The notes under the pieces are model-generated. The model was not told the DNA's origin. It was given only the letters and a program-made list of their open reading frames with translations, and searched no databases. The translations under genes were made by a program, and so were the position numbers. A stretch of DNA of 64,000 nt from NCBI GenBank assembly GCA_030847615.1, contig JAUMIR010000004.1, forward strand, positions 71,641,001-71,705,000. Reading direction: 5' to 3'. Source of the stretch: Gambelia wislizenii (lineage: Eukaryota; Chordata; Lepidosauria; Squamata; Crotaphytidae). This document shows positions 56,839 through 59,800 of the stretch, piece by piece (position 1 is the stretch's first letter; every line of letters starts with the position of its first letter).

Positions 56839-59800
56839 TTCACCATCCAGAAAGACTTGCAACAACTTCTACACATTCCAACAGAGAAAGGAACATCAGC
56901 CTTTGGCCTAAAAGACCTAATACTGTATTCTGAAAAGGCAAGGCTGCTTGAGGGCCTTTGCTGAACAAATAAATCACCTCCCCCAACTTTCCATTCCAGA
57001 GAAGGCTGTACCATTTTCTTTCTTCTAAGCTACAAAATAGACATAACAAGCCAGCCAGAACAGAGCCATGTGATGCATTTTCTCCAGTGCTAATCCTCTT
57101 CCTCCTCCTGAGACCTTCCTCTTTAACAGAATCTTGCAGAGGGAGAACGACCCCACTCCTAATAAATTCCAGTGACCTAAAATAATTAATTCAATAAAAG
57201 TGTAGGATTAACTTGTATTAATCAAGGAATCTATAGAGATCAGCCACATAAGGGGCAAAATCTAATGAATTAATTATTTAGCGAGTTAATTAACATTTCC
57301 CCCCAAGCTCTGTCTGTTTGTTTGTCTATCTATCTTCCACTTTCTGTTTCTTTAGCCCATTAATCTTTTGTTTCATTTCCTGGAAACAAACAGGATTCAC
57401 AGGGAAACACACATTCCTAGAAATTCCTAGAATTTCTTGCATCAATGAATAGATTCTTTTTCTTACATTTTAGTTACTACAAGCTATTTTCAATCTACAG
57501 TGATTACTGCTATATGGCCATATTAAAAGTCTGCTCCTGTAATGAGAAGCATTCGGTAATCTTTTCTATTCTGTTCACAAGACTGCCGTACTTAACAATT
57601 AAATGTAGGGTGTCTCCAAGGTCCTCTTCACCAAATAAAATAAAATAAAAGCAATAATGAATTACTACATTAAATTAATCAGTCTGTAGATGCACCTCAC
57701 CAGCAAGGTAGCACCTTTGGATCTAAGATTTGCCTCAGTGGTAGAAATTAGTCATCTCCCATCTCTCCTCCTTCTCTTTTATATACGTCAGCCTTGAGAG
57801 AGAGAATTCACATGGTCAAACCCGAACCAAGGAGGATTGTTCAACCTACAAATATTGTAGCAGCAAATAGATATCACAGGCAACAAAGGGTTAAGAAGAA
57901 GCATTTATTCTGTAGACTCTGGAATCTCCACTCTCCTCTTGGGAGAAACCTCTGATTAAAGTAGCAAGACCAAATTCTAATCCTATTCCCCCTCATTTCT
58001 AAAGAAGATGCTGTTTGCTGGGTTGAAACTGAGGTCATCTGCAAGTAGGCACAAGATGCCAATGCAGTTGCTTCCGCTCTGCAGGACACTCTTCCCATAG
58101 AGACTGCTGGGAGAGGCTTGTTGTTTATCAATAATTTAGCCCTCTTCAGCATGCTTTTCAGATTAACTGTGGGTACAGCAAGCACTGCTGGGTGGTGCCC
58201 ATTTCTCAAGGACTTATTTCCTTCCTAGTCCGTATGACATACAAAGCCTAAATAATTCAGATGCTATTTTGATCAGAAAGAAGCATTCACTCAAAAACAT
58301 CCTAACACCTAAGGAAGCAGAAATAGGGAAAGAAGAGAAAACATTAAGCTGTGAATTGTTCCTATTTTAAGCTGGAGAACCATCATCTGCTTTCATGTTT
58401 TTCCAGTCTATGCAAGGTTGGTAAGCTGTGGCCCTCCAGAGGTTTTTTATTACAACCCCCACAATCCCCAGCCAGCATGGCCAACGCTCAGGAAATATGT
58501 GAAGTCAAAGGCTTTCACAGCCAGCATCCATAGTCTTTCCTTGGTTTTTTTCTGGGCTGTGAGGCTGTATTCTAGAAGAGTTTATTTCTGACGTTTCGCC
58601 TGCATCTGTGACTGGCATCTTCAGAGAATGCTCAGGTAGGAGTGTGTGTGTGTGTGTGGGGGTTTATATACTGTGAACCACTGTTGGAGGGGATATGCAA
58701 ATTTGTGTATTTGAATGGCTAGCTTCTGGTTGGAGATATGCAAGGAGGATTAGTGTCTATTTGCTTAATGGCTGGCTGATCTGGCTGCCAGTCCTGAAAA
58801 ACACTAAAATCAAAACGCAGCACTTGCAAATGAGCTCCACCCAGGGACAGGGGGATTTCCAGCAGACAATGGACCATTAGCCAATCATTAGCCAAACAGA
58901 CACTAGTCCTCCTTGCATATCTCCACCCAGAAACTAGCCATTCAAATGCACAAATTTACATATCCCCTCCAACAGGGGTTCACAGTATATAACCCCCACC
59001 CACCCAAACTCCTACCCGACCATTCTCTGAAGATGACAGCCACAGATGCAGGCGAAACATCAGAAATAAACTCTTCCAGAACACGGCCTCGCAGCCTGGA
59101 AAAAAAACCAAGGAAAATTTCAGGAAGTAATGGGGGATTGTAGTCCAAAACATGTGGAGGGCCACAGTTTGCCTGCTTCTGCTGTAAAGCCATGAACATA
59201 CAACTTAGTGGTCATTCAGGTACCAAAAATAAGCAAGCAAACAAAAAGGATGCTTCCTCCTTGCACAGGTTTAAGTCTTGCCTGAAGACACTGATGGCAA
59301 ACAGACACATACTAAATACCCTGCAGAGCCTTATGGTATTTATCCACAGATAGGCCAAACGTCCTTTATTCTCAAGCCCATGTCAGTGACGTTATAAACA
59401 GGGAAGAAAGTTCTAGGTTCTAGAAATGAGCCTCTCTAGGCATTGGGAGAAGTAAGTAAACAAGATGAGCAGAGATAACCTAAATACAAAAGTCTGTGTT
59501 CTGTTAAGCATACACTTCTCATATATGAGTGTGTGTTTGTGTGTATGAAATAAAAGTATAAAATAAATAAATATCTTTAGCACTATTTGGAACAAACTTT
59601 TCAACAAACCAGATTGGATTAGAAGCAAGCTGCTTCAGGATTTCTGAAAAGATCAGCCATTACTATAAAACACTCAGTTAAAACCACTGGTCCAAACAAT
59701 ATAAATCACTGCCCCAAACAAGATTTTTAGAGTGCTGTGGAACACAATTCTCAAATCCACAGCAACAAGAAAACTGAGGAATGCAAAGTGAAACAGCGAA

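What the first reader, a model, noticed from the sequence alone, without database searches (positions are those of the whole stretch)
58536..59116. Head-to-head Penelope-like repeats, each with a hammerhead-like core
Both 43-nt cores (58586-58628 on minus, 59023-59065 on plus) keep CUGANGA, GAAA, the cleavage triplet and a 4-bp stem I, in the right order and spacing. Stem II is very short with a bulged U and stem III is the self-complementary ACGU, the arrangement expected of small hammerheads that work as dimers. Transcripts from either strand of the intron would contain one sense copy; on the NFASC sense strand it is the better preserved left-arm copy. The inverted arms could also fold on each other.
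Basis: partly seen in the sequence, partly recalled or inferred. Interest (0 to 1): 0.75.

Follow-up and report, generated by a model that had tools for sequence, protein, structure and literature searches.

The report
Decayed Penelope insertion with ribozyme remnant
An old, short, two-headed insertion of a known kind of jumping gene (a Penelope-like element) lies in an intron of the neurofascin gene; it carries worn copies of that element's known small self-cutting RNA, which are probably inactive here because the two halves of the insertion fold onto each other.

Summary
Two inverted arms (58536-58780, 58876-59116; 87% identical) each carry CUGANGA, GAAA, an NUH triplet and a 4-bp stem I. 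No Rfam family reached gathering score; no hammerhead model was listed on the isolated cores at E up to 10. Still, in both arms an ATG begins at A9 and the expected cut lies 26 nt after it, the layout published for the Anolis Poseidon element PAc, whose hammerhead cut only with protein present.

The unit is larger than reported: a 625-nt insert (58495-59119) flanked by TCAGGAA inside an older foldback repeat, whose palindrome returns when the insert is removed. So the pair is most likely one Penelope pLTR insertion; its arms end 124 and 87 nt into the frame, one with a tail.

Head-to-head pLTRs with a target repeat and a tail, minimal Penelope hammerheads and intronic Penelope hairpins are in print. 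Here the right core is damaged in stems II and III, and either transcript folds at about -400 kcal/mol, burying the sense core. I judge it an ordinary decayed copy; cleavage was not testable.

The parts
58420..58494 (.). left half of an older foldback (palindromic, MITE-like) repeat that was the target; its last 7 nt are the target repeat
   Evidence: 41-nt inverted pair with 59133-59173; with 58495-59126 removed the 153-nt remainder is self-complementary, 88 of 125 columns, E 2e-10
58488..58494 (+). target site duplication TCAGGAA, left copy
   Evidence: exact repeat of 59120-59126; a related partial copy at 2082-2012 (minus) reads through the site with one TAGGAA
58495..58780 (-). left-arm Penelope-type pLTR copy, 3' end outward at 58495, 124 nt into the short frame
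58495..58531 (-). 37-nt 'tail' extension present in the left arm only
   Evidence: left arm ends at +124, right arm at +87 from the A of ATG; an optional tail of 30-40 bp is described in PMC11167929 and one of 31 bp in PMC3846280
58586..58628 (-). left hammerhead-type core: CUGAAGA, GCC/GGC stem II, GAAA, ACGU stem III, GUC, UUCU/AGAA stem I; expected cut between 58590 and 58589
   Evidence: sequence; no Rfam hammerhead match
58616..58618 (-). ATG of the short frame, its A being A9 of CUGANGA
   Evidence: same placement as PAc
58781..58875 (.). single-copy spacer between the arms; which arm it continues is not settled
58876..59119 (+). right-arm Penelope-type pLTR copy, 3' end outward at 59119, 87 nt into the short frame (homology to the left arm ends at 59116)
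59023..59065 (+). right hammerhead-type core, damaged: stem II GAC opposite GGC, stem III ACAU; expected cut between 59061 and 59062
   Evidence: no Rfam hammerhead match
59033..59035 (+). ATG of the short frame in the right arm
59120..59126 (+). target site duplication TCAGGAA, right copy
59120..59173 (.). right half of the host foldback repeat

Best explanation
A single, old, non-coding insertion of a Penelope-like (Poseidon-type) retroelement: two 5'-truncated pLTR copies joined head-to-head, 3' ends outward, dropped into an older foldback repeat in an intron of the neurofascin gene with a 7-bp target duplication. Each arm includes the element's minimal type I hammerhead at its ORF start. 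In the parent element that motif works, if at all, as a dimer or with protein help. At this locus it is a remnant: the right copy is damaged, and in either transcript the sense core is buried in the hairpin formed by the two arms. Shown here: arms, cores, direct repeat, restored host repeat, arm end positions, exon matches. Inferred: Poseidon membership, one insertion event, inactivity.
For: Inverted arms. TCAGGAA on both sides, and insert removal restores a palindromic host repeat; an independent partial copy crosses the site uninterrupted (68-column match, 73.5%, E 1.7e-4 in the window; 53 of 73 columns with other scoring). [quoted passage not shown] Arm ends at +124 and +87, 37 nt apart, against published RT starts in a loop 111-118 nt into the ORF and at a second site, with the 30-40 bp tail between them. 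Head-to-head inverted pLTRs, target repeats of 8-10 bp and one optional tail are described for Penelope (PMC3846280 passages). Whole-insert RNA folds at -398.6 (plus) and -418.6 (minus) kcal/mol, 0 of 20 shuffles as good in each case, with 40 of 43 and 42 of 43 core positions paired to the other arm. The cores differ at 3 of 43 sites (7%) against 28 of 202 outside (14%): lower in the core but not significantly so, Fisher P 0.31.
Against: No Penelope reverse transcriptase or endonuclease sequence was seen in the insert, and the 37-residue frame has no Pfam match (the rest of the insert was not scanned against Pfam). No other family copy was found: 0 exact pattern matches in viral contigs and genome contigs, collections that are not expected to hold animal genomes; the own-genome search did not complete. 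Direct sequence comparison with PAc was not possible. The left end (+124) lies 6 nt beyond the published 111-118 interval. The 7-mer alone is weak: 73 of 3000 random pairs of 25-nt stretches share a 7-mer. PAc prefers ATT; the empty site has ATT only on the minus strand, 2 nt outside the repeat, not at the cut. In PMC3846280 some families have direct pLTRs only or inverted pLTRs without a target repeat, so the arrangement is frequent, not universal.
Confidence: 0.88

Rival explanations
1. The left-arm core is a working hammerhead that cuts the neurofascin pre-mRNA (alone, as a trans dimer, or with a Penelope protein).
For: Core letters, stem I, GCC/GGC stem II and ACGU stem III are intact in the left copy, and it is sense in the gene. 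PAc's hammerhead is active with its protein. The cores differ less than the rest of the arms, 3 of 43 against 28 of 202, though not significantly.
Against: No Rfam hit. The best fold of the left core pairs the catalytic CUGA with UCAG, -9.1 kcal/mol, 44 of 200 shuffles as good. The modelled left-left dimer hammerhead scores -5.7 against -22.5 for the best dimer fold, with no known ribozyme run as control. The left core with its partner from the other arm, modelled as two 43-nt strands, scores -75.7. PAc RNA alone did not cut, and no RNA-seq reads began or ended at its cut site (PMC11167929).
Confidence: 0.05
2. The insert acts mainly as a transcribed hairpin: the arms, about 240 nt each, form a duplex in the intron that could be edited or processed to small RNAs.
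For: Fold energies and pairing of the core with the other arm. PMC1431729 (passages) notes Penelope inverted repeats in introns of D. virilis, one predicted to form a stable hairpin.
Against: A predicted fold is no proof of use; no RNA data were available here.
Confidence: 0.25
3. Two separate Penelope insertions that happen to face each other.
For: The arms differ at 31 of 245 columns and have different ends.
Against: One direct repeat encloses both arms and the host repeat is restored when both are removed together. None of the 12 direct-repeat families brackets one arm alone, but that search had a 12-nt minimum and would miss a 7-bp target repeat.
Confidence: 0.07

Closest known systems
Poseidon element PAc of Anolis carolinensis (PMC11167929; passages and the whole main-text section read)
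   Same: ORF start at stem II of a minimal hammerhead, cut 26 nt after the start codon, two RT start sites with the tail between them, cutting and extension of both target strands
Penelope families of Adineta vaga with inverted pLTRs (PMC3846280; passages read)
   Same: inverted head-to-head pLTRs, target duplication (8, 9 and 10 bp reported, 7 here), optional tail on one pLTR, pLTR includes the first codons of the ORF
   Different: no direct pLTR pair and no ORF here; a 95-nt spacer lies between the arms
Minimal type I hammerheads of Penelope-like elements (Cervera and De la Pena 2014; Lunse et al. 2017; neither held, seen only as reference-list entries and as cited in passages of PMC6155905, PMC7761336 and PMC7229834)
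   Same: near-absent helix III, dimers expected for cutting
   Different: one sense copy per transcript, opposed by an antisense copy; right copy damaged
Penelope inverted repeats in Drosophila virilis introns (PMC1431729; passages read)
   Same: intronic Penelope inverted repeat predicted to form a hairpin
   Different: different host and, by inference, a different element family

Membership tests
Penelope-like element (Poseidon type) | reverse transcriptase and GIY-YIG endonuclease in one ORF | tested here: not met
   the insert is 625 nt with only the start of a frame; no Pfam match for its 37 aa. The locus is therefore read as a pLTR fragment of such an element, not a complete member
Penelope-like element (Poseidon type) | pLTR with ORF start inside it and optional 30-40 nt tail | tested here: met
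   ATG in both arms; ends at +124 and +87 against the published sites
Penelope-like element (Poseidon type) | inverted pLTRs inside a short target duplication | tested here: met
   TCAGGAA both sides, host repeat restored
Penelope-like element (Poseidon type) | sequence similarity to other Penelope copies | tested here: inconclusive
   own-genome search asked nine times and never answered; exact pattern scans of viral and prokaryote collections gave 0 and say little
Hammerhead ribozyme, minimal type I | CUGANGA, GAAA, NUH and stem I in order | tested here: met
   both cores; strict descriptor hits only here in 64 kb
Hammerhead ribozyme, minimal type I | stems II and III able to form | tested here: inconclusive
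   left: 3-bp stem II with bulged U, ACGU stem III by dimer; right: both broken
Hammerhead ribozyme, minimal type I | covariance-model match | tested here: not met
   no hammerhead family at gathering score, at E up to 5 on 2.7 kb, or at E up to 10 on the cores; whether Rfam models detect known Penelope hammerheads was not tested
Hammerhead ribozyme, minimal type I | self-cleavage | not testable with these tools
   needs an in vitro transcript

The most novel reading that the evidence does not exclude
The insertion is the footprint of two-sided priming: both 3' ends of a 7-nt staggered break primed reverse transcription of Penelope RNA, one at the distal start site (+124, left) and one at the proximal site (+87, right), and the two truncated cDNAs were joined in the middle. 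This would explain head-to-head pLTRs with one tail without the self-priming on antisense RNA proposed in PMC3846280.
Probability: 0.4. Interest if true: 0.45.

Novelty: new member of a known kind. Interest (0 to 1): 0.2.

Why it matters
As a ribozyme it matters little: one decayed copy of a described motif. As an insertion footprint it is tidy. One direct repeat, two outward ends at two different positions and an identifiable empty host repeat make it a usable example for asking how Penelope elements produce head-to-head copies, a point that the passages read of PMC3846280 and PMC11167929 leave open. A survey of such pairs in one reptile genome could decide it.

Tried and rejected
Rfam at two thresholds and on the isolated cores: the hits listed (PreQ1, MS2, Xist_exon1, RydC, SMAD5-AS1_2, eiav_FSE, Fluoride) are all below their gathering scores and were taken as chance.

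More family copies: a window BLAST of 58396-59180 gave the two arms, the two halves of the host repeat and short GT-repeat matches. Pattern scans of viral contigs and genome contigs gave 0. The genome search 'own' was asked nine times and never answered, so copy number and other head-to-head pairs are unknown.

Selection on the core was considered and not supported: 3 of 43 against 28 of 202 differences, P 0.31; leaving out four columns at the ends gives 3 of 43 against 24 of 198, P 0.43 (same call). The longer core pieces (76 and 73 nt) fold no better than shuffles: 101 and 124 of 200 as good.

A palindrome at the inner end of the left arm (58781-58791) was considered as a self-priming point; it is off the centre of symmetry of the arms, so it was not taken further.

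The name hAT for the host repeat and the sense of the spacer (I lean to the right arm) rest on recall of squamate repeats and were not tested. That the genome is a squamate reptile is likewise recall. The hammerhead numbering (C3, A9, 15.1, 16.1, H17) is recalled, apart from C3 and G8 named.

Full report
What is there. The two arms are a real inverted repeat: 58536-58780 against 58876-59116; over the slightly longer stretches aligned, 214 of 245 ungapped columns are identical, with 20 transitions and 11 transversions. Each arm holds a 43-nt core, minus 58628-58586 and plus 59023-59065, with CUGAAGA, GAAA, GUC or AUC, and UUCU/AGAA. The cores differ at three sites. One breaks stem II of the right copy, one lies in loop II, and one turns the right copy's ACGU into ACAU, which no longer pairs with itself. 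The left copy keeps a 3-bp stem II after a bulged U and the ACGU.

Is it a hammerhead by model. No. Rfam gives nothing at gathering score in 64 kb. No hammerhead family appears among the 3 matches at E up to 5 on 2.7 kb, the 2 on the left core or the 3 on the right core at E up to 10. A strict descriptor, written after the motif was seen, finds only these two sites in the window, with 0.3 expected per 64 kb in 200 simulations; the loose pattern CUGANGA...GAAA occurs 15 times against 11.25 expected. Since the two strict hits are copies of one another, this is not strong by itself. The minimal Penelope hammerheads usually lack helix III according to PMC6155905 (passages), so a miss by Rfam would not be surprising, but I did not run a known Penelope hammerhead as control.

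Why the motif is still believable. In both arms an ATG starts at A9 of CUGANGA and the expected cut is 26 nt after the codon. [quoted passage not shown] That agreement was not used to find the motif.

The real boundaries. The sequence TCAGGAA stands at 58488-58494 and 59120-59126. Around it is an older foldback repeat: 58420-58460 pairs with 59133-59173. When 58495-59126 is taken out, the 153-nt remainder is self-complementary, 88 of 125 columns, E 2e-10. A second, partial copy of that repeat at 2082-2012 reads through the site with a single TAGGAA (E 1.7e-4 in the window). A 7-mer by itself would be weak, as 73 of 3000 random pairs of 25-nt stretches share one; the restored repeat is the stronger argument. 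So the two arms most likely came as one 625-nt insertion.

The ends. Counted from the A of the ATG, the left arm ends at +124 and the right at +87, 37 nt apart. PMC11167929 reports reverse transcription starting in a loop 111-118 nt into the ORF and at a second site, and equates the sequence between them with the optional 30-40 bp Penelope 'tail'; it also reports that the enzyme cuts and extends both target strands and uses the same start sites on both. The left end here lies 6 nt beyond the published interval, which I could not reconcile by alignment. PMC3846280 (passages) describes inverted pLTRs inside 8-, 9- and 10-bp target duplications, a 31-bp tail on one of the inverted pLTRs, and head-to-head as the most frequent inverted arrangement, which it explains by self-priming on an antisense template; it also describes families with direct pLTRs only and an inverted pair without a target repeat. 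The present locus fits the first of these anatomies. Different ends on the two sides are what priming from both strands could give, but one locus cannot decide between that and self-priming. PAc prefers to cut at ATT; the empty site has ATT only on the minus strand, 2 nt outside the repeat, which counts mildly against.

Does the ribozyme work here. Probably not. The best fold of each core pairs the catalytic CUGA with UCAG; 44 of 200 shuffles fold as well, for each core. The modelled dimer hammerhead scores -5.7 kcal/mol for left-left, 7.3 for left-right and 17.8 for right-right, against best dimer folds of -22.5, -20.3 and -20.0; such energies ignore the tertiary core and no positive control was run. 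More important, any transcript through the insert contains the sense core and the antisense of its partner. Whole-insert folds are -398.6 (plus) and -418.6 (minus) kcal/mol, with 0 of 20 shuffles as good in each case, and in them 40 of 43 (plus) and 42 of 43 (minus) positions of the sense core pair with the other arm. PAc RNA without protein did not cut. The cores differ less than the rest of the arms, 3 of 43 against 28 of 202, but not significantly, P 0.31.

Setting. The insert lies in an intron of a neurofascin gene on the minus strand: exon matches at 62811-62683 and 60530-60336 are upstream, 33870-33739 and others downstream (with a recalled protein probe); an Ig exon at 32.8 kb best matches neurofascin among solved structures, E 1.3e-41.

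Literature. Seven searches were answered. Minimal hammerheads in Penelope-like elements and the dimer idea (passages of PMC6155905, PMC7761336 and PMC7229834) and intronic Penelope hairpins (PMC1431729, passages) are in print. Cervera and De la Pena 2014 and Lunse et al. 2017 were not held and are known to me here only as cited.

Verdict. A decayed, ordinary Penelope pLTR pair with a hammerhead remnant: a new copy of a known kind. The part worth following is the insertion mechanism.

Noticed in passing
58396-58494 and 59120-59180; 2012-2082; 22525-22563: an older foldback repeat (TGTGGCCCTCCAGA...) that was the target of the insertion, a partial copy at 2 kb (E 1.7e-4) and a weak match at 22.5 kb (E 0.007); recalled as a hAT-type squamate repeat, not tested
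   Followed up: partly
30287-30694 (-): decayed reverse transcriptase fragment, RVT_1 E 8.7e-07, 29.3 bits against a cut-off of 29.6
   Followed up: partly
41503-41853 (+): fragment of a copia-type gag, Retrotran_gag_2 E 3.2e-12
   Followed up: partly
48688-49197 (-) and 17050-17484 (-): two similar frames (KMVKGLETMPYEERLREL...), recalled as CR1-type LINE 3' ends; no Pfam match for the first or the second
   Followed up: partly
58781-58791: short palindrome CTGGCTGCCAG at the inner end of the left arm, off the centre of symmetry; could mark the join of the two cDNAs
   Followed up: partly
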